A stretch of 64,000 nt of DNA, taken from Streptomyces luteolifulvus. Its GTDB lineage: Bacteria > Actinomycetota > Actinomycetes > Streptomycetales > Streptomycetaceae. Positions 29,487 through 38,795 of this stretch are shown here, piece after piece. The first letter of the stretch is position 1, and each line of letters starts with the position of its first letter. The notes under the pieces were generated by a model, which searched no databases, was not told where the DNA came from, and saw only the letters and a list, made by a program, of their open reading frames with translations. A program made the position numbers and the translations under genes. Location of the stretch: positions 1 through 64,000 of the forward strand of contig NZ_VZRB01000026.1 in the NCBI RefSeq assembly GCF_008806595.1, in the 5' to 3' direction.

Positions 29487-29505
29487 GTTTCTCGGGGGTG
29501 CGAAG

Positions 29506-30093
29506 ATGGGCGACACGATGGACGGCAGCAAGCAGCAGCGCCGCGGAAACACCCGCCAGCGCATCCAGGACGTGGCGCTCGAACTCTTCGCCGAGCAGGG
29601 CTACGAGAAGACCTCACTGCGGGAGATCGCCGAGCGCCTGGACGTCACCAAGGCCGCGCTCTACTACCACTTCAAGACCAAGGAAGAGATCATCGTCAGT
29701 CTCTTCGAGGATCTGACGCGGCCGATCAACGAGCTGATCGAGTGGGGCCGGGAACAGCCGCACTCCCTGGAGACGAAGCAGGAGCTCGTACGCCGCTACA
29801 GCAGGGCCCTGGCCGGGGCGGCCCCGCTGTTCCGCTTCATGCAGGAGAACCAGGCGACGGTGCGGGAGTTGAGCATCGGCGAGTCGTTCAAGAACCGCAT
29901 GCTGGGCATGCGCGACATCATCGTCGACCCGGACGCGGACCTGGTCGCCCAGGTCCGCTGCGTCAGCGCGCTGTTCACGCTGCACGCCGGGATGTTCGTG
30001 ATGCAGGACATCGAGGCCGATCCCGAGGAGAAGCGCGAGGCCGTCCTCCAGGTCGCGATCGACCTCGTGACCCAGGCGCATCAGGGTTCCTGA
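29506..30093 (+). CDS. TetR-family repressor of the adjacent efflux pump
   Basis: A 195-aa regulator with an N-terminal TetR helix-turn-helix at about residues 14-60 (TRQRIQDVALELFAEQGYEK, then VTKAALYYHFKTKEEII) and an all-helical ligand-binding domain. ATG 29506 follows a GGGGGTGCGAAG stretch; a second Met is at codon 5. It is divergent from the MFS pump and the 21-bp operators lie between them. The local arrangement is the classic drug-sensing one, and autoregulation is likely because one operator covers its own -35. Confidence 0.95.
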   Translation: MGDTMDGSKQQRRGNTRQRIQDVALELFAEQGYEKTSLREIAERLDVTKAALYYHFKTKEEIIVSLFEDLTRPINELIEWGREQPHSLETKQELVRRYSRALAGAAPLFRFMQENQATVRELSIGESFKNRMLGMRDIIVDPDADLVAQVRCVSALFTLHAGMFVMQDIEADPEEKREAVLQVAIDLVTQAHQGS

Positions 30094-30119
30094 GCGCCTG
30101 TCGGACGTCAGAGCCTGTG

Positions 30120-30845
30120 TCAGACCTTCAGGCCCTTGGCGCGCAGGAAGGCGACCGGGTCGATGGCCGAGCCGTAGTTCGGGGTCTTACGGATCTCGAA
30201 GTGCAGGTGCGGACCACTGGAGTTGCCCGTGTTGCCGGACCGGGCGATGTGCTGGCCGGTCTTGACGACCTGGCCGACGCTCACGTCGATGCGCGAGAGG
30301 TGGGCGTACTGCGAGTAGGTGCCGTTGCCGTGCTTGATGACGATGGCGTTGCCGTACGCCGGGCCGTCACCGGCGCCGTTGCCACCCGCCTTGACGACGG
30401 TGCCGCCGTGCGTGGCCATGACGTTGGTGCCGCTCGGCACGGCGAAGTCCTGCCCGCTGTGGGTGGACTGCCACATGCCGCCCGCCTGCGCGAACTTGGC
30501 GGAGAGGGCGTACTTCTTCACCGGGTCGACCCAGGAGACGGCCTTCTTGGCGGCGGCAGCCTTCTTCGCGGCTGCGGCGGCCTTCTTGGCAGCGGCGACG
30601 GCCTTGGCCTTCGCCTTCGCGGCCGCGGCGGCCTGCGCAGCCTTGGCGGCCCTGGCCTGCGCGGCGGCCTGCGCCTGGACGGCGCTCGCGGTGGTGGCGG
30701 CCGGGGCGGCGGCCGCGCTGGTGTCGGCGGCGACCGCGACCCCGGCCCCCAGTACGGCCGTAGCCCCCAGGCCGGCGGCCATGAAGGCCGCACGAGTACG
30801 GAGCCGGGACGTACGGGAAGAACGGGACGAGACGCGCTGGGACAT
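30120..30845 (-). CDS. Secreted M23-family metallopeptidase
   Basis: A 241-aa secreted lysostaphin-type peptidoglycan endopeptidase. The N-terminus has Arg residues and a hydrophobic segment ending VAVAADTSAAAA, a signal peptide. A long Ala/Lys-rich region (about residues 50-105, repeated AAKKA units) may bind wall polymers. The catalytic domain has zinc ligands in HSGQDFAVPSG and HLHFEI. It cleaves cross-links in the wall and probably supports growth or germination. ATG 30845 follows GAGGTTTCC. The roughly 280-bp upstream region could hold a long leader, but I could not match it to the ydaO riboswitch that controls similar genes. Confidence 0.92.
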   Translation of the reverse strand: MSQRVSSRSSRTSRLRTRAAFMAAGLGATAVLGAGVAVAADTSAAAAPAATTASAVQAQAAAQARAAKAAQAAAAAKAKAKAVAAAKKAAAAAKKAAAAKKAVSWVDPVKKYALSAKFAQAGGMWQSTHSGQDFAVPSGTNVMATHGGTVVKAGGNGAGDGPAYGNAIVIKHGNGTYSQYAHLSRIDVSVGQVVKTGQHIARSGNTGNSSGPHLHFEIRKTPNYGSAIDPVAFLRAKGLKV

Positions 30846-31238
30846 GGAAACCTCATGGGAACGGGGACAGGAAGACCACCCGGCGTTCAGACACCTGCCG
30901 AATGGGCCATCCCTTGGTAACCCCGCGACCAGCGGACTCCCAAACCCCCCATCTACGACGGGAGCTAGTACTCCACCGCAAAGCTCACCACCTATTGACA
31001 GAGCTGCCATCCGGGACGAATCCACCCATAGCAACCGGGTTGTTCCTTAACGGGCGAGATATATGTCCGTTTTGCCCAAATGACGCCATCCACTATTCCA
31101 CCTAGTAACGGACAAATCGCCTGTGCGGCATGTCACCGGCGGCAAAGATCCAAGCACCGGGGAATGTGACGGGCGCTACGCTGCTGGCCAGTCAACAAGG
31201 TTGGGGAATGTGACGACATGCCCCGAGGGGGAGGCCGA
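30846..31238. other. Long divergent intergenic region between the M23 peptidase and the NACHT gene
   Basis: Nearly 400 bp, less GC-rich than its surroundings (for example AGATATATGTCCG near 31058). On the minus strand it would carry the peptidase leader, including GGTCGCGGGGTTACCAAGGG around 30911-30930. No tRNA, riboswitch or gene is recognised. The right end holds the NACHT promoter candidates and the 13-bp repeats described separately. Confidence 0.5.
31159..31215 (+). promoter_or_regulatory. Paired 13-bp direct repeats around the NACHT gene's -10 candidate
   Basis: GGGGAATGTGACG occurs at 31159-31171 and again at 31203-31215, 44 bp apart. A -10-like TACGCT (31177-31182) lies between them and GTG 31239 follows. 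The repeats may be operator sites controlling the gene; no regulator is adjacent. Confidence 0.45.
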
Positions 31239-34200
31239 GTGGATCCGACGGTCATCGGCATCAGGCTTGCGTCGAGCCTGGTCGGTCCGCTGGTGAAGAG
31301 GCTGTTCGTGACCGAAGGCCCCGGCGCCGGGCTGGTCGACAAGCCGGTGCGGATATCGGGGTTCGTCTCGTTCAAGGGTGAGCACCGCACCCTCGACAAG
31401 GCCGCCCTGCTCAAGCTCTCCGCCGAGCTGGTGCGCCAGTCAACGAAGACCGGCGAGCGTCCCCTCCACGCCGACGAGGAACAGGCCGTCGTGCACGCCC
31501 TCGCCGACACCCTGCACGCCCTCGGCGACCTCACCATGACGGACGCCCAGGCCGTCGAGCTCGGACACGAAGTCCTGGCCGCCGGCCTCCGGTCCGCGAG
31601 CGGCAATCCGGACCGGGACCTGTCCTTCGACGCGAGCCTGCTCTACGGCAGCCTGCTCACCACGGCCTGTCTGCACATCGTCCACTTCTTCACCCAGCGG
31701 TCCACCTTTGTCGCCCGCACCCTCGTCGAGCAGAGCCGCCGGCAGCGCCAACTCATCGCCAAGGTGGACGAGTTGATCGCCCGGACGCCCCCGGTCGGCG
31801 GCACCGACACGGCCTTCGAGGAGCGCTATCTGTCGTACGTCGTCACCCGGCACAGCCATCTCACGATCTACGGCATCGACCTGACCGACTCCCCCGACCG
31901 CTGGCCCCTGGATGCCGCCTACCTCAGTCTCCAGGCGCTGGGACCGGCCGAGGACGACCACGCGACCGGGCCCGGCGGGCTGCAGATCGCCGCCGCCGCG
32001 ACCGCGCGGCCCGCCGAACAGGCCCTCGCCGAGCGCGACCGGGTGCTGCTGCGCGGGGTGGCCGGCTCCGGCAAGACGACCCTCGTGCAGTGGCTCGCGG
32101 TGACATCGGCGCGGGGCGAGCGCGGTGACCGGATCCCGTTCGTGCTGCCCCTGCGCAGTCTCGTCCGCCGTCCCGACGGCCTCCCGGCCCCCGACGCCTT
32201 CCTGGCCGCCGTACGCGTCCCCTTCCACGCCTCACAGCCGGACGGCTGGGCGGACCGGGTGCTCGGCGCCCGCCGCGGACTGCTCCTGGTCGACGGGATC
32301 GACGAGATCCCCGAGCGGGACCGCGAGCACACCCGCCGCTGGCTGCGCGACCTGCTGGACGTCTATCCCGGCAACCGGTGGCTGGTCACCTCCCGCCCCT
32401 CCGCCGTACGGGAGGACTGGCTCGCCCCGGACGGCTTCGCCGAGCTGGCCCTCACCCCCATGGGCCGGAGCGATGTCGCCGCGTTCATCGCCCGCTGGCA
32501 CGCGGCGGCCCGCACCGGTGCCCCCGAGGCCGACCTCGACCGCCTCACCGGCTACGAGCACGGCCTCCTCGACGCCGTACGGACCAAACCCGACCTCGGC
32601 CGTCTCGCCACCAACCCCCTGATGTGCGGACTGATCTGCGCCCTGCACCGGGACCGGCGCGGCTACCTCCCGCACGGGCGGCAGGAGTTGTACGACGCCG
32701 CCCTGTCGATGCTGCTCGCCCGCCGGGACGAGGAGCGGGACATGTTTCCCCGAGGAGGCGGCGAGGGCGTCCACCTCACCGAGCTCCCCCAGATCCAACT
32801 GCTCCAGCGGCTCGCCTACTGGCTGATCCGCAACAACCAGTCGGAGATGGACCGCGAGCGCGCCGAGCGCATCGTGGCGGACGTCCTGCCGTCGCTGCCG
32901 GCCGCCGCGGCGCAGGGCGACGCCCGGAAGATCCTGCGGTATCTGCTCGTCCGCAGCGGGCTGCTGCGGGAACCCTCCGCCGGCACGGTCGAGTTCGTGC
33001 ATCGCACCTTCCAGGACTACCTGGGCGCGAAGGCGGCCGTCGAGGACGGCGACTTCGGGCTGCTCGTCCGCGGTGCGGTGGACGAACAGTGGGCGGACGT
33101 GGTCCGCATGGCGGTGGCGCACGCCCGGCCCCGTGAACGGGCCGAACTGCTCACCGACCTGACCGGGTCGGCACGGCACCTGGACGGCCCGGCGGCCACC
33201 CGGGTACGGCTCCTCGCCCTGGCCTCACTGGAACACGCCACCCAGCTCGACCCGGCCGTCCGGGCCGCCGTGGAGCGCGACGCCGCGACGCTCATCCCGC
33301 CCCGGACCACGGAGGAGGCCCGCGCCCTCGCCTCGGCCGGCCCCCTCGCCCTGGAACTGCTGCCGGGCCCGGAGGGCCTGAGCGACGCAGAAGCACGAGC
33401 GGTCGTGGTCACGGCGTCCCTGATCGGGACGGAGGCGGCGATGGGGGTGCTGGCCCGGTTCCGGGACCATCGGGCGGTGGATGTCCGCGCCCAGCTCTCC
33501 TGGAGCTGGTGGCGTTTCGACACCCGACGGTACGCCGAGGAGATCATCGCCCATCTGCTCCCGGACGACCTCTTCTTCTCCGTGCGTTCCAGGGAGCAGT
33601 TGCGTGCCCTGTGCGACCTCGGCGGCAGGCCGGCCGTGCAGCTCCTCGACGGGACCGACCCGGCCGAGCTGAGCGCCGCGCCCTCTCCCGACACGGTGAC
33701 CCGCCTGCATGTGGGCGAGTGCGGGGAGCTCAACGACCTGAACTGTCTGACGCCCCTGCGCCGGCTCAGCCACCTGTCCCTGTACGGATCCCCACTGCTG
33801 GAGGAGCTCTCCCCGCTCGCGCGTCTGCCCTTGCAGCAGCTGTCCCTCAACCGCCTCGCCGGCCTCGAACGGCCTGGCGCCCTGGCCCCGTTCAGCGGCT
33901 CCGCCACCCTGTGGCACCTCAGCATCGGTGTGACGCTGATGGCGGCGAGCCTCCACGACGCCCTTCCGCAGGACGTGTCCCTGCGCTATCTGAGGGTCAC
34001 GCCGAGGGCGGTCCAGCACACCGGCCTGCGCGGTCTCCATCGGCGCTGCTCGCTGAAGACGCTGAGCCTGGGCGGACTGTTCGACGACCTCCCCGCCGCA
34101 GACCACGATGAGATCGCCCTGCTCCCCGCCTTGGAGGAACTGCGCCTCGTCTGGCCGCCCGGCGGATGGACCGGCCCGCCCCTTCGCGGCGTCACCAGTC

Positions 34201-34373
34201 TGCGAATCAACCCGTTCATGGGTGACGAGGACCTCTCAGGGCTCCACGCGTCCTTTCCCGACGTACAGAACGTCACGCTCCAACTCGCCCCGAACGTCTA
34301 CGAGATCCCCGATCGGATCCTTGCGCCCCTCCCGGTCCGACCCACCATCGTGAAATCGCACACGTCAGTGTGA
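31239..34373 (+). CDS. NACHT NTPase (NLR-like) with LRR-type C-terminus
   Basis: A 1044-aa STAND ATPase. An N-terminal helical region (about residues 1-250) resembles the all-helical domains that precede NACHT modules in actinobacteria. The NACHT domain has Walker A GVAGSGKTT at about 273-281 and Walker B LLLVDGIDEIPE at about 347-358, with downstream SRPSAVRED and NPLMCGLI segments. A helical arm follows, then leucine-rich-like repeats from about 820 (RLHVGECGELNDL, LSHLSLYGSPLLEEL, LQQLSLNRLAGLE). Bacterial NACHT proteins of this class are known to protect against phages. GTG 31239 is chosen for its GGGGGAGG ribosome site; ATG 31218 is open but lacks one. Phage defence is inferred. Confidence 0.9.
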   Translation: MDPTVIGIRLASSLVGPLVKRLFVTEGPGAGLVDKPVRISGFVSFKGEHRTLDKAALLKLSAELVRQSTKTGERPLHADEEQAVVHALADTLHALGDLTMTDAQAVELGHEVLAAGLRSASGNPDRDLSFDASLLYGSLLTTACLHIVHFFTQRSTFVARTLVEQSRRQRQLIAKVDELIARTPPVGGTDTAFEERYLSYVVTRHSHLTIYGIDLTDSPDRWPLDAAYLSLQALGPAEDDHATGPGGLQIAAAATARPAEQALAERDRVLLRGVAGSGKTTLVQWLAVTSARGERGDRIPFVLPLRSLVRRPDGLPAPDAFLAAVRVPFHASQPDGWADRVLGARRGLLLVDGIDEIPERDREHTRRWLRDLLDVYPGNRWLVTSRPSAVREDWLAPDGFAELALTPMGRSDVAAFIARWHAAARTGAPEADLDRLTGYEHGLLDAVRTKPDLGRLATNPLMCGLICALHRDRRGYLPHGRQELYDAALSMLLARRDEERDMFPRGGGEGVHLTELPQIQLLQRLAYWLIRNNQSEMDRERAERIVADVLPSLPAAAAQGDARKILRYLLVRSGLLREPSAGTVEFVHRTFQDYLGAKAAVEDGDFGLLVRGAVDEQWADVVRMAVAHARPRERAELLTDLTGSARHLDGPAATRVRLLALASLEHATQLDPAVRAAVERDAATLIPPRTTEEARALASAGPLALELLPGPEGLSDAEARAVVVTASLIGTEAAMGVLARFRDHRAVDVRAQLSWSWWRFDTRRYAEEIIAHLLPDDLFFSVRSREQLRALCDLGGRPAVQLLDGTDPAELSAAPSPDTVTRLHVGECGELNDLNCLTPLRRLSHLSLYGSPLLEELSPLARLPLQQLSLNRLAGLERPGALAPFSGSATLWHLSIGVTLMAASLHDALPQDVSLRYLRVTPRAVQHTGLRGLHRRCSLKTLSLGGLFDDLPAADHDEIALLPALEELRLVWPPGGWTGPPLRGVTSLRINPFMGDEDLSGLHASFPDVQNVTLQLAPNVYEIPDRILAPLPVRPTIVKSHTSV

Positions 34374-34485
34374 CGCACATCTCTAGCGACTTACCCTCCA
34401 GTAACCCTACGGTTCCCCTCGCGCCACTCGCCCCAACGAACATGCACCCGACAAAGCACGTATGGACGTGAGAGGACCCCCCACC

Positions 34486-35115
34486 ATGAGCAGTCGCCAC
34501 CTGGCGCGCCGCACAGCAGTCACCGTCGTCTCCGCGGCCGCCCTTGTGGCCATGGCCGCCCCGGCCGACGCCGCGACCACGACGAGCACCTCCACCACGG
34601 CCGCCGCTGCATCGGCGGGGGATGTCGACTACGCCACCTGGCAGAAGGACTGCCAGGCCGTGATGAACCAGGCCCTGCCGTATCTGAAGCAGCGCATCGC
34701 CGCCACCAAGCCGGGCGAGAAGCAGGCGATCGTCTTCGACATCGACAACACCACGCTGGAGACCGACTTCGGCTTCAGCTACCCGCAACCGGCCAACAAG
34801 CCGGTCCTGGACGTCGCCAAGTACGCCCAGGAGCACGGCGTCTCACTGTTCTTCGTGACCGCACGGCCCGGCATCATCTACACGTTCACCGACTACAACC
34901 TCAGGTACGACGGCTACAAGGTCTCCGGGCTGTACGTCCGCGGTCTGTTCGACCTCTTCAAGGACGTCGCCGCCTACAAGACCGCCCAGCGCGCCGACAT
35001 CGAGAACAAGGGCTACACGATCATCGCGAACATCGGCAACAGCGCCACCGACCTGTCGGGCGGCCACGCCGAGAAGACGTACAAGCTGCCGGACTACAAC
35101 GGTCAGCTGTCGTAA
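34486..35115 (+). CDS. Secreted HAD-family acid phosphatase
   Basis: A 209-aa secreted phosphatase of the HAD superfamily, subfamily IIIB/class B type. A signal peptide (about residues 1-30, ending APADA) precedes the mature protein. The catalytic DxD is IVFDIDNTTLE with Asp85 and Asp87; FFVTARPG supplies motif II and ANIGNSATDLSGG the late acidic motif. It probably hydrolyses phosphomonoesters outside the cell. ATG 34486 is preferred over the in-frame ATG 34462 because the Arg-rich signal n-region begins there. A strong hairpin follows its stop. Confidence 0.92.
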   Translation: MSSRHLARRTAVTVVSAAALVAMAAPADAATTTSTSTTAAAASAGDVDYATWQKDCQAVMNQALPYLKQRIAATKPGEKQAIVFDIDNTTLETDFGFSYPQPANKPVLDVAKYAQEHGVSLFFVTARPGIIYTFTDYNLRYDGYKVSGLYVRGLFDLFKDVAAYKTAQRADIENKGYTIIANIGNSATDLSGGHAEKTYKLPDYNGQLS

Positions 35116-35133
35116 CAGGCAGGCCTGCCATGC

Positions 35134-35170
35134 GAAAGGGGCCGGTGCTCCGAGAGCACCGGCCCCTTTC
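35134..35170. terminator. Bidirectional terminator between phosphatase and clpC
   Basis: A perfect 17-bp stem (35134-35150 with 35154-35170) with a 3-nt CGA loop, 19 bp after the phosphatase stop and just before the convergent clpC stop. The stem starts GAAAGGGGCCGG and ends in CCCCTTTC, so it is terminator-like in both directions. Confidence 0.9.
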
Positions 35171-35192
35171 GGTCAGGCGAACCCCTTCGGGG

Positions 35193-37718
<2,526 letters not shown>

Positions 37719-38159
37719 CGTTAATCGCTCCTCAGAGCGGTCAGGCAGTAAGGGGACGCTCCCCTCGCTGTCCTTCCGCAGCTTAGTCCCGCAAGCGGGG
37801 ACCGCTCATTCCAACTGCCGACACCGGACCGAGAACCAACACTGCCTCCTGACCCCGAACGCCGACATCTGCTCCAACCCGATGGTGCGAGACGATGTTC
37901 CCGCAGGCCAGACAGTTACCCTCACCATCAGTACGCCGATGGCGAACGTGAGACGCCGTGATCTGCGTGTCGCCCCCTCCCACTAGGGATGTCTTACCCG
38001 CTGCCACGGACAGTCCATGCCGCGTGCACCGGTTCCCTCCGCTACGGGCGAACAACCTTGCGCCACCCCGTGCCCCCGCACGCCCCGAAATCCGGCACTC
38101 TGTGCGTTTAAGGGAGCACCCAGCGTAACCTGCGGGCCGTTCCCACTGTTGCACTTGTC
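37719..38159. promoter_or_regulatory. Divergent clpC regulatory region with a ClgR-like box
   Basis: A 441-bp gap without a gene. On the minus strand GTTCGCCATCGGCGTAC (about 37932-37948) matches the ClgR consensus core CGC-N5-GCG, with two departures from the published pattern. No certain -10/-35 for clpC could be chosen; the real promoter may lie between 37800 and 37920. On the plus side the gap precedes the 38160 gene. Confidence 0.4.
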
Positions 38160-38795
38160 ATGGTTGGCAGCCTCCCTCCGGTCACGGTTCCCCTCCCCCG
38201 CCGGCCGCTCGACGAGAGCGATCAGGTTCGCCGGTGGTACGAGAACGAACTGGGCTGGCCCGTGGTGCCCGCGAACGAGGGAGAACCCGAAAACCGCAGA
38301 ACGGCGGTACGACTCCGTACGGGCCTGCGCTTCGACGTGCTGGACGTACCGGCCGAGGCGGGCCGGGCGACGCTGCGGCACCTGGCAGCGGGCTCTCCGG
38401 TGGCCGTGCAGGGCGACCGGATGCGGCTGCTGGTGGCGGCGGGCAGCGCGGAGGAGCTGCCCGGGGTGCTGCGCTGGCTGGAGTGGGGCGCGCTGGCACT
38501 CGACCTCGCCGTGCTGGGCGAGGGCGGGCTCATGGACGCGCCGCTGCCCCCCGCCGGGGGACCGGCCGGAGCGCGGCCGCCCGCGCCGGGACGCCCCGGT
38601 GTCCTGCAGGGGGCCGCCGTGTGGCTGCGGCCCCCCGGGCCGGGGTGCGAGGTCGAGGCCTCGCTGCCGACGGTGTCGGCTCTGGGGGGCGGTGGTGGCG
38701 CCCCCGATCTGGTGCGCGTTGTGGACACGGTGGCCACCCAGTGCCACCGGCTGCGGCTGGTGCGCGCGTGCGCTCAGCCGTTGGCCTTCTCGTAG
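38160..38795 (+). CDS. Conserved hypothetical protein between clpC and lsr2
   Basis: A 211-aa soluble protein beginning MVGSLPPVTVPLPRR, with a DQVRRWYENELGWPVVP segment and Pro/Gly-rich stretches (about residues 130-150). The WYENELGWPV part recalls the N-terminus of actinobacterial primase/polymerase-like proteins, but no catalytic residues are recognised, so no function is proposed. Codon usage is normal for the window. It is convergent with lsr2 and overlaps its 3' end by 22 bp. Confidence 0.65.
   Translation: MVGSLPPVTVPLPRRPLDESDQVRRWYENELGWPVVPANEGEPENRRTAVRLRTGLRFDVLDVPAEAGRATLRHLAAGSPVAVQGDRMRLLVAAGSAEELPGVLRWLEWGALALDLAVLGEGGLMDAPLPPAGGPAGARPPAPGRPGVLQGAAVWLRPPGPGCEVEASLPTVSALGGGGGAPDLVRVVDTVATQCHRLRLVRACAQPLAFS

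What the first reader, a model, noticed from the sequence alone, without database searches (positions are those of the whole stretch)
31239..34373. NACHT-LRR (NLR-like) protein, a likely immune gene in an otherwise core region
Walker A/B motifs of the NACHT type, an N-terminal helical domain and leucine-rich-like repeats together resemble bacterial NLR relatives shown to defend against phage. It stands alone with an unusually long upstream region and codon use like its neighbours, so it may be a long-settled resident. The N-terminal effector and the sensed ligand are unknown.
Basis: partly seen in the sequence, partly recalled or inferred. Interest (0 to 1): 0.7.

Follow-up and report, generated by a model that had tools for sequence, protein, structure and literature searches.

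The report
Streptomyces immune-receptor-like gene cluster beside clpC
The gene encodes a bacterial relative of animal and plant immune receptors, sits at a fixed spot beside clpC where many Streptomyces keep one or more such genes, and its sensing half varies far more than the rest, which suggests a rapidly changing anti-virus defence locus that has yet to be tested.

Summary
The gene at 31239-34373 (+) encodes 1044 aa: NNH1 (aa 7-181), NACHT (268-423), a helical linker and about 11 leucine-rich repeats (799-1039). From residue 186 on, the predicted structure is closest to NLRC4, NLRP3 and NOD2. It is a genuine bacterial NLR, a known kind of protein.

New here is its locus. The gap between an M23 peptidase gene and clpC holds an NLR of at least 600 aa in 60 of 116 bounded Streptomyces loci, which were chosen by another gene. 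Ten loci have tandem or frame-split copies, 13 only remnants, 43 no detected trace. All 83 NLR ORFs in the 127 loci fetched point the same way. Most carry NNH1; some carry a trypsin domain, typically behind a Trypco2 gene. In the window's lineage the repeats average 38% identity against 76% for the NACHT core, and variation peaks on the exposed strand face. The NLR diverges in step with neighbouring genes, but presence is patchy.

Best reading: a diversifying NLR locus, resembling a plant resistance-gene cluster, that senses phage or other invaders and stops the infected cell. Immunity is inferred. The ligand and NNH1's activity are unknown; NNH1 gave no convincing solved-fold match.

The parts
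31239..34373 (+). NLR gene (NNH1-NACHT-helical linker-LRR), 1044 aa
31257..31781 (+). NNH1 domain (aa 7-181), presumed effector
   Evidence: Pfam PF22733 E 8.1e-56; same place
32040..32507 (+). NACHT NTPase domain (aa 268-423), Walker A aa 273-280, Walker B aa 348-356
33159..33608 (+). helical linker region (aa 641-790)
   Evidence: secondary structure
33633..34355 (+). leucine-rich repeats, about 11 strands (aa 799-1039), hypervariable sensor part
30846..31238 (.). AT-richer divergent intergenic region; GGGGAATGTGACG at 31159-31171 and 31203-31215 upstream of the NLR
30120..30845 (-). M23 peptidase gene, left border of the NLR locus (start inferred)
34462..35115 (+). acid-phosphatase-like HAD protein; present in 46 of 116 bounded loci
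35193..37718 (-). clpC, right border of the NLR locus
   Evidence: the name ClpC is recalled from the SCO3374 context; the best NCBIfam hits are ClpB and ClpA models below their cut-offs
38160..38795 (+). SCO3374-family gene used as an NLR-independent anchor
   Evidence: NF040464 E 1.2e-73

Best explanation
The gene is one member of a recurrent NLR locus in the Streptomyces chromosome between an M23 peptidase gene and clpC. It most likely works as an intracellular alarm. The LRR concave face binds an invader product, or a host protein that the invader disturbs; the NACHT NTPase then opens and oligomerises; this brings the NNH1 domains together and activates them, so that the infected hyphal compartment is arrested or killed before phage spread. 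The locus evolves by birth and death: copies duplicate in tandem, decay and disappear, the LRR face diversifies, and lineages differ in effector (NNH1 or a trypsin-like protease with Trypco2). Shown here by computation: architecture, locus, copy number variation, remnants, effector difference, LRR variability. Inferred: ligand binding, oligomerisation, cell killing, phage as target.
For: NNH1 + NACHT by Pfam; LRR and NLRC4/NLRP3/NOD2-like model, Z about 24-26. Locus surveyed with an NLR-independent anchor: of 116 loci bounded by M23 and clpC, 55 had 0, 51 one, 8 two and 2 three NLR ORFs, one of the ones being a 146-aa fragment; 60 have an NLR of at least 600 aa. All 83 NLR ORFs found in the 127 loci are co-oriented. 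Of 83 ORFs of at least 300 aa inside the 116 intervals, 72 are NLR. 13 of the 56 intervals without a 600-aa NLR hold NLR remnants at E<=1e-3; reversed sequence gave 0. 23 of 53 NNH1 matches in 61 Streptomyces genomes lie at this site. Trypsin-NACHT NLRs with Trypco2 upstream at the same site, His/Asp/Ser motifs kept in at least 90% of 21. Lineage identity NNH1 0.66, NACHT 0.76, LRR 0.38; entropy 1.87 at strand-exposed, 1.42 at other, 0.70 at buried LRR positions, exposed against other p 0.0016; pooled dN/dS LRR 0.57, NACHT 0.19. NLR distances track flanking genes, rho 0.77-0.82.
Against: No phage, expression or toxicity data. No PADLOC model matches well (best E 0.015). NNH1 has no convincing solved-fold match (best Z 4.9) and no clear membrane helix (5 of 103 NNH1 proteins reach a mean hydropathy of 1.6), so the killing step is a guess. 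LRR dN/dS is below 1, and exposed positions vary more in most proteins, so relaxed constraint could explain part of the variability. On a flank-gene tree, presence of the window's own lineage shows no significant signal (8 changes, shuffled mean 9.7), so exchange or very frequent loss must be allowed for besides vertical descent; within the inner clade the match to flanking genes is weaker (rho 0.28-0.61). The neighbours are housekeeping-type genes, not a defence island.
Confidence: 0.58

Rival explanations
1. The protein senses internal stress or cell-wall state (its neighbours are a peptidoglycan peptidase and clpC) and controls development or programmed death without any role against phage.
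For: Fixed position beside M23 and clpC; NNH1 is enriched in Streptomyces: 16 of 28 genus genomes and 9 of 268 others of the class, by my count of the rows listed; STAND proteins are discussed in connection with apoptosis and immunity in multicellular bacteria (PMC8195603, passages).
Against: 43 of 116 bounded loci have no detected trace and 13 only remnants; the LRR part is hypervariable, unlike a receptor for a conserved internal signal.
Confidence: 0.17
2. Recognition of non-kin hyphae or other mobile elements (plasmids, conjugation) rather than phage, comparable to fungal NLR incompatibility.
For: Hypervariable sensor and turnover; the host is hyphal (recalled).
Against: No allorecognition data; the bacterial NACHT proteins described in PMC12169576 act on phage (passages).
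Confidence: 0.12
3. The site is a neutral insertion hotspot where accessory genes land, and the NLRs are passengers with no selected link to the place.
For: 11 of 83 larger ORFs at the site are not NLRs; two of them were scanned: L116 is an S13 carboxypeptidase and L191's had no Pfam match; the rest were not scanned. Relatives occur on plasmids and elsewhere in chromosomes.
Against: 72 of 83 are NLRs and all NLR ORFs share one strand; on-locus NLRs cluster on the NLR tree (on-locus NNH1 label 11 changes, shuffled mean 50.8); divergence follows flanking genes; no match in 50,697 phage records.
Confidence: 0.1
4. The window copy is decaying and non-functional.
For: Remnants and frame-broken copies exist at the site (L109, L163).
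Against: Full ORF, intact Walker motifs; pooled dN/dS 0.19 in NACHT over 21 pairs, one of which is the window and L032.
Confidence: 0.03

Closest known systems
Bacterial NLRs and NLR-related bNACHT antiphage proteins (e.g. bNACHT25)
   Same: Central NACHT, N-terminal effector position, C-terminal sensor; proteins with NACHT plus LRR are called bona fide bacterial NLRs (PMC12169576, passages)
   Different: bNACHT25 has a nuclease effector and an NCH1 C-terminus; this one has NNH1 and LRRs, and sits in a recurrent chromosomal cluster
Animal NLRs NLRC4, NLRP3, NOD2
   Same: Model aligns across NACHT to LRR, Z about 24-26
   Different: 15-21% identity in the best rows; NNH1 in place of CARD or PYD (those names recalled)
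Plant NLR resistance-gene clusters
   Same: Tandem copies, remnants, variable exposed LRR face; the likeness is recalled, not tested
   Different: NACHT rather than NB-ARC; bacterial; at most four copies seen in one fetched locus
Trypsin/Trypco conflict systems
   Same: Alternative occupants of the site carry trypsin with a Trypco2 neighbour; Trypco2 was named for this pairing (PMC7159879, passages)
   Different: The window gene has no trypsin and no Trypco2; the switch is NACHT-LRR, not MoxR-vWA

Membership tests
Bacterial NLR (NACHT-LRR STAND protein) | NACHT domain with Walker A and B | tested here: met
Bacterial NLR (NACHT-LRR STAND protein) | C-terminal leucine-rich repeats | tested here: met
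   no Pfam LRR family matched the window protein at E<=1; matches below cut-off in three site relatives
Bacterial NLR (NACHT-LRR STAND protein) | N-terminal effector-position domain | tested here: met
   NNH1; trypsin in the same position in relatives; activity not tested
Bacterial NLR (NACHT-LRR STAND protein) | nucleotide-dependent oligomerisation on ligand binding | not testable with these tools
   needs biochemistry
Antiphage defence system | protects against phage | not testable with these tools
   needs plaquing assays
Antiphage defence system | match to a known defence model | tested here: inconclusive
   PADLOC best E 0.015; the library dates from 2023
Antiphage defence system | lies in a defence island or mobile element (common, not obligatory) | tested here: not met
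   housekeeping-type neighbours
Trypsin/Trypco2 conflict system | trypsin-like domain and Trypco2 neighbour | tested here: not met
   no trypsin match in the window protein; its interval holds only the NLR and HAD ORFs in my gene calls; both features occur in other occupants of the site

The most novel reading that the evidence does not exclude
Streptomyces carry a chromosomal immune-receptor locus that evolves like a plant resistance-gene cluster: ancient fixed position, tandem birth and death of NLRs, exchange of effector type, and selection for diversity on the LRR recognition face, giving a soil bacterium a rapidly changing receptor repertoire at one site in the core chromosome.
Probability: 0.45. 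Interest if true: 0.85.

Novelty: new member of a known kind. Interest (0 to 1): 0.6.

Why it matters
Many defence systems were discovered by genomic co-localization (PMC13092281, abstract in the listing). This family lies among housekeeping-type genes and escapes the PADLOC models used here, and the held main text of an Actinobacteria defence survey has no occurrence of NLR or NACHT (PMC10482375, term search only). If it is an immune locus, the variable LRR face names the residues to test for ligand binding, and related strains with and without the gene make the question of what bacterial NLR repeats recognise directly testable. It would also show that clustered, diversifying NLR loci exist in bacteria as they do in plants (the plant comparison is recalled).

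Tried and rejected
Known defence model: none (PADLOC; NCBIfam). PHROGs gave weak NACHT-region matches, the best two to families of unknown function. PDB by sequence: no match at E<=0.1. NNH1 fold: predicted alone (mean pLDDT 82.5); best Z 4.9, to a P450, by VIA-align 2 and no Foldseek match at E<=0.001; a known fold is not excluded. NNH1 as a membrane-inserting helix bundle: highest 19-residue hydropathy in the N-terminus 1.40 in the window protein, median 1.24 over 103 NNH1 proteins, so not supported. Structured RNA near the gene: no Rfam match at E<=0.05 in 29500-38200; no promoter-like or terminator-like match in 30800-34600. LRR swapping between copies: LRR distance rises with core distance (rho 0.79 over 666 pairs, binned minima rise too), so gradual divergence is preferred. 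Phage-borne copies: no match in 50,697 phage records. Strict vertical inheritance of the window lineage: weakened.

Label corrections: in the tree I labelled L224 off-locus although it is the on-locus gene of G098, and L239 off-locus although it adjoins M23; the count of 11 on/off changes may therefore be slightly too high. Off-locus rows were chosen from NNH1 and P0001 matches, so the tree says little about off-locus trypsin types. ORFs in the intervals were called by my own codon-usage script trained on nine window ORFs, and NLRs were recognised by a profile grown from P0001.

Not in print: ten full-text searches, of which I saw only the listed papers (at most 20 each), listed none on an NLR cluster beside clpC in Streptomyces; subscription papers are largely not held. 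The 2023 Cell paper on bacterial NLR-related proteins was not held and is recalled only.
Full report
What is there. The ORF at 31239-34373 (+) is real and complete. Pfam places NNH1 at aa 7-181 (E 8.1e-56) and NACHT at 268-423 (E 2.8e-28). Walker A is at 273-280 and Walker B at 348-356. An AlphaFold2 model built on a 42-row alignment (the window protein and 41 relatives) has mean pLDDT 81.9 and pTM 0.62; it shows a helical N-terminus, the NTPase, a helical stretch at about 641-790 and about 11 regularly spaced short strands from 799 to 1039. The closest solved chains are NLRC4 (Z 25.7, 679 aligned, rmsd 19.8), NLRP3 (Z 25.7, 646 aligned, rmsd 12.4) and NOD2 (Z 24.6, about 600 aligned, rmsd 17); the part 191-709 aligns to the NLRP3 NACHT domain at rmsd 4.1 over 410 residues. 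I read the large rmsd over the full length as a different domain arrangement. I take the NLR architecture as established.

The N-terminal domain. NNH1 predicted alone (35 sequences, mean pLDDT 82.5) gave no convincing solved fold: best Z 4.9, no Foldseek match at E<=0.001. Its family rang in 0 of 14 control genomes. In a class sample, 25 of 296 genomes match, 23 over the cut-off; by my count of the listed rows these are 16 of 28 genus genomes and 9 of 268 others, two of the 9 below the cut-off (251 rows without a match are not listed, and I assume that the genus rows are all listed). Invariant or nearly invariant polar positions include E48, D102, H146, R154, S155 and R167. Whether it is an enzyme, an adaptor or a killing domain is not decided.

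The locus. Of 150 genus genomes, 117 have at least one relative of the protein anywhere. Among 39 loci fetched by similarity, most carry the same order: HK, MFS, M23 (-), one or two NLRs (+), sometimes HAD (+), ClpC (-), SCO3374 (+). To avoid choosing by the NLR, I anchored on the SCO3374-family gene, which matched in 148 of 150 genus genomes, the window's own included. I fetched 127 of the 147 others; 20 were left out, 5 because the anchor lay near a contig end and 15 because the best anchor match was weaker than about 1e-15. Of the 127, 116 are bounded by M23 and ClpC. Among these 116, 55 have no NLR ORF, 51 one, 8 two and 2 three. One of the ones (L109) is a 146-aa fragment, so 60 have an NLR of at least 600 aa; one of the twos (L163) looks like a single gene split by a frame break. 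The 11 unbounded loci have none in 4, one in 6 and four in 1. All 83 NLR ORFs of the 127 loci, fragments included, lie on the strand opposite clpC. Of 83 ORFs of at least 300 aa inside the bounded intervals, 72 are NLRs and 11 others; that both numbers are 83 is a coincidence. Of 56 bounded intervals without an NLR of 600 aa, 13 hold NLR remnants at E<=1e-3 (12 at 1e-6), against none in reversed sequence.

Share of the family at this site. In 61 genus genomes 37 have an NNH1 match and 53 matches are listed, one below the cut-off and one a 40-position piece; 23 lie within 20 kb of the anchor, 25 do not, and 5 are in genomes for which I gave no anchor. So this is a major but not the only home. 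Relatives also occur on 44 plasmid records, 14 of Streptomyces, all under 60% identity, and in no phage record.

A second effector at the same site. Four of eight site proteins scanned carry trypsin-like N-termini and the other four NNH1. By profiles built here, 21 on-locus NLRs are trypsin type, 103 NNH1 and 4 unassigned (this set of 128 mixes the survey and the similarity-fetched loci and includes the window). The small ORF just upstream of trypsin-type NLRs is Trypco2 in two of two scanned; a third scanned Trypco2 ORF (L082) stands without a trypsin-type NLR. Similar small ORFs precede most other trypsin-type NLRs by eye. Conserved LT.AH, D.ALL and GLSG motifs in at least 90% of 21 suggest active proteases. 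Loci L063, L107, L124 and L139 carry both types. This supports reading the N-terminus as an exchangeable effector.

Evolution. On a FastTree of 166 NACHT cores, on against off locus needs 11 changes; in the group table the on-locus NNH1 label needs 11 against a shuffled mean of 50.8. The 21 on-locus trypsin rows and two unassigned rows form one on-locus clade; the single off-locus trypsin row (L231) lies elsewhere on a long branch. The window lies in a set of 38 rows that are all on-locus (support 86), and in starred sets of 16 and 23 on-locus rows. For the distance tests I used 38 rows: that set without L189 (identical to L053) plus its neighbour L191. NLR-core distances follow those of flanking genes (rho 0.82 MFS, n 31; 0.82 HK, n 31; 0.82 SCO3374, n 37; 0.77 ClpC, n 37; p 0.0005 each), and less strongly in the inner 23-row clade (rho 0.28-0.61, p 0.001-0.030). 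Against simple descent, presence of any NLR needs 28 changes on a flank-gene tree of 117 loci (shuffled mean 39.1, lowest of 200 shuffles 30) and the trypsin type 13 (mean 20.5, lowest 17), but the window lineage needs 8 (mean 9.7, lowest 7) and a second lineage 10 (mean 10.7, lowest 9), which is no signal. I conclude long residence at the site with very frequent loss, and possibly exchange by recombination in the conserved flanks.

Sensor variability. Mean pairwise identity in the 38 rows: NNH1 0.66, NACHT core 0.76, linker 0.61, LRR 0.38; the window against nine nearest relatives has 0.84-0.88 in the NACHT core and 0.46-0.53 in the LRR. In 23 rows (the window and 22 close relatives), entropy averages 1.87 at strand-exposed LRR positions, 1.42 at other LRR positions and 0.70 at buried ones; exposed against other, permutation p 0.0016. 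I assigned the strand register from the model's strands. Over 21 non-overlapping close NNH1-type pairs, pooled dN/dS is 0.32 NNH1, 0.19 NACHT, 0.25 linker, 0.57 LRR; the highest LRR value of one pair is 0.88. Synonymous change is high too in the LRR (pooled pS 0.31 against 0.18 in NACHT), so alignment quality or mutation may contribute. Diversifying selection is plausible, not proved.

Mechanism. By analogy to NLRs, I propose sensing by the LRR face, NACHT opening and oligomerisation, and effector activation that halts the infected cell. bNACHT25 shows that a bacterial NACHT protein can defend against phage, with a nuclease effector and sensing that needs host DnaJ (PMC12169576, passages). Nothing here tests phage defence for this gene.

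Standing. As a protein it is a new member of a known kind. As a locus, a fixed, NLR-dominated, multi-copy chromosomal site with two effector types was not seen in the papers that my searches listed. PADLOC models do not reach it; an S. venezuelae phage study screened for defence genes with DefenseFinder and PADLOC (PMC10117723, passages), so such genes could have been passed over.

Noticed in passing
window 31159-31215: GGGGAATGTGACG occurs twice, starts 44 bases apart, in the AT-richer region upstream of the NLR start; a single GGGAATGTGA lies upstream in L032 and L041 of 18 relatives looked at, the shorter GAATGTGA in L043, L162 and L171. Possible operator.
   Followed up: partly
L063:12119-15442, L119:12399-15647, L072:3759-7079, L193:3658-5862: Trypsin-NACHT NLRs occupy the same site in other Streptomyces; small ORFs upstream of such NLRs are Trypco2 where scanned.
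   Followed up: yes
L181 (G128), L118, L104: Three or four NLRs in the same orientation at the site.
   Followed up: partly
L018 and L019 (G096 C6:5043560, G055 C3:455784): An M23-like gene and an NLR lie together far from the anchor, while the anchor loci of the same genomes (L141, L160) have an NLR but no M23 match; a rearrangement may have split the locus. More context could not be fetched.
   Followed up: partly
L116, L145, L128, L134, L113, L052, L164: ORFs with similar starts recur at the site next to or instead of NLRs; the one scanned (L116) is an S13 D-Ala-D-Ala carboxypeptidase.
   Followed up: no
L052:14952-16025 and L127:3722-4825: YhcG/DUF1016 PDDEXK nuclease gene at the site in L052, and an ORF with a near-identical start in L127.
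   Followed up: no
L213-L219, L230, L233-L236: A separate 12-row clade of off-locus relatives (11 NNH1, 1 unassigned), roughly 43-49% identical to the window protein, recurs in many genomes and may have its own fixed site.
   Followed up: no
window protein aa 261-598: PHROGs family phrog_18297 (unknown function) matches the NACHT region at E 2.1e-10, so some viruses may encode NACHT-like proteins, though no phage record matched the protein by tblastn.
   Followed up: no
H1: NZ_CP108307.1 302952-305902: A 51%-identical NLR on a Streptomyces plasmid has no listed gene under the match, in a stretch with two transposase genes.
   Followed up: no
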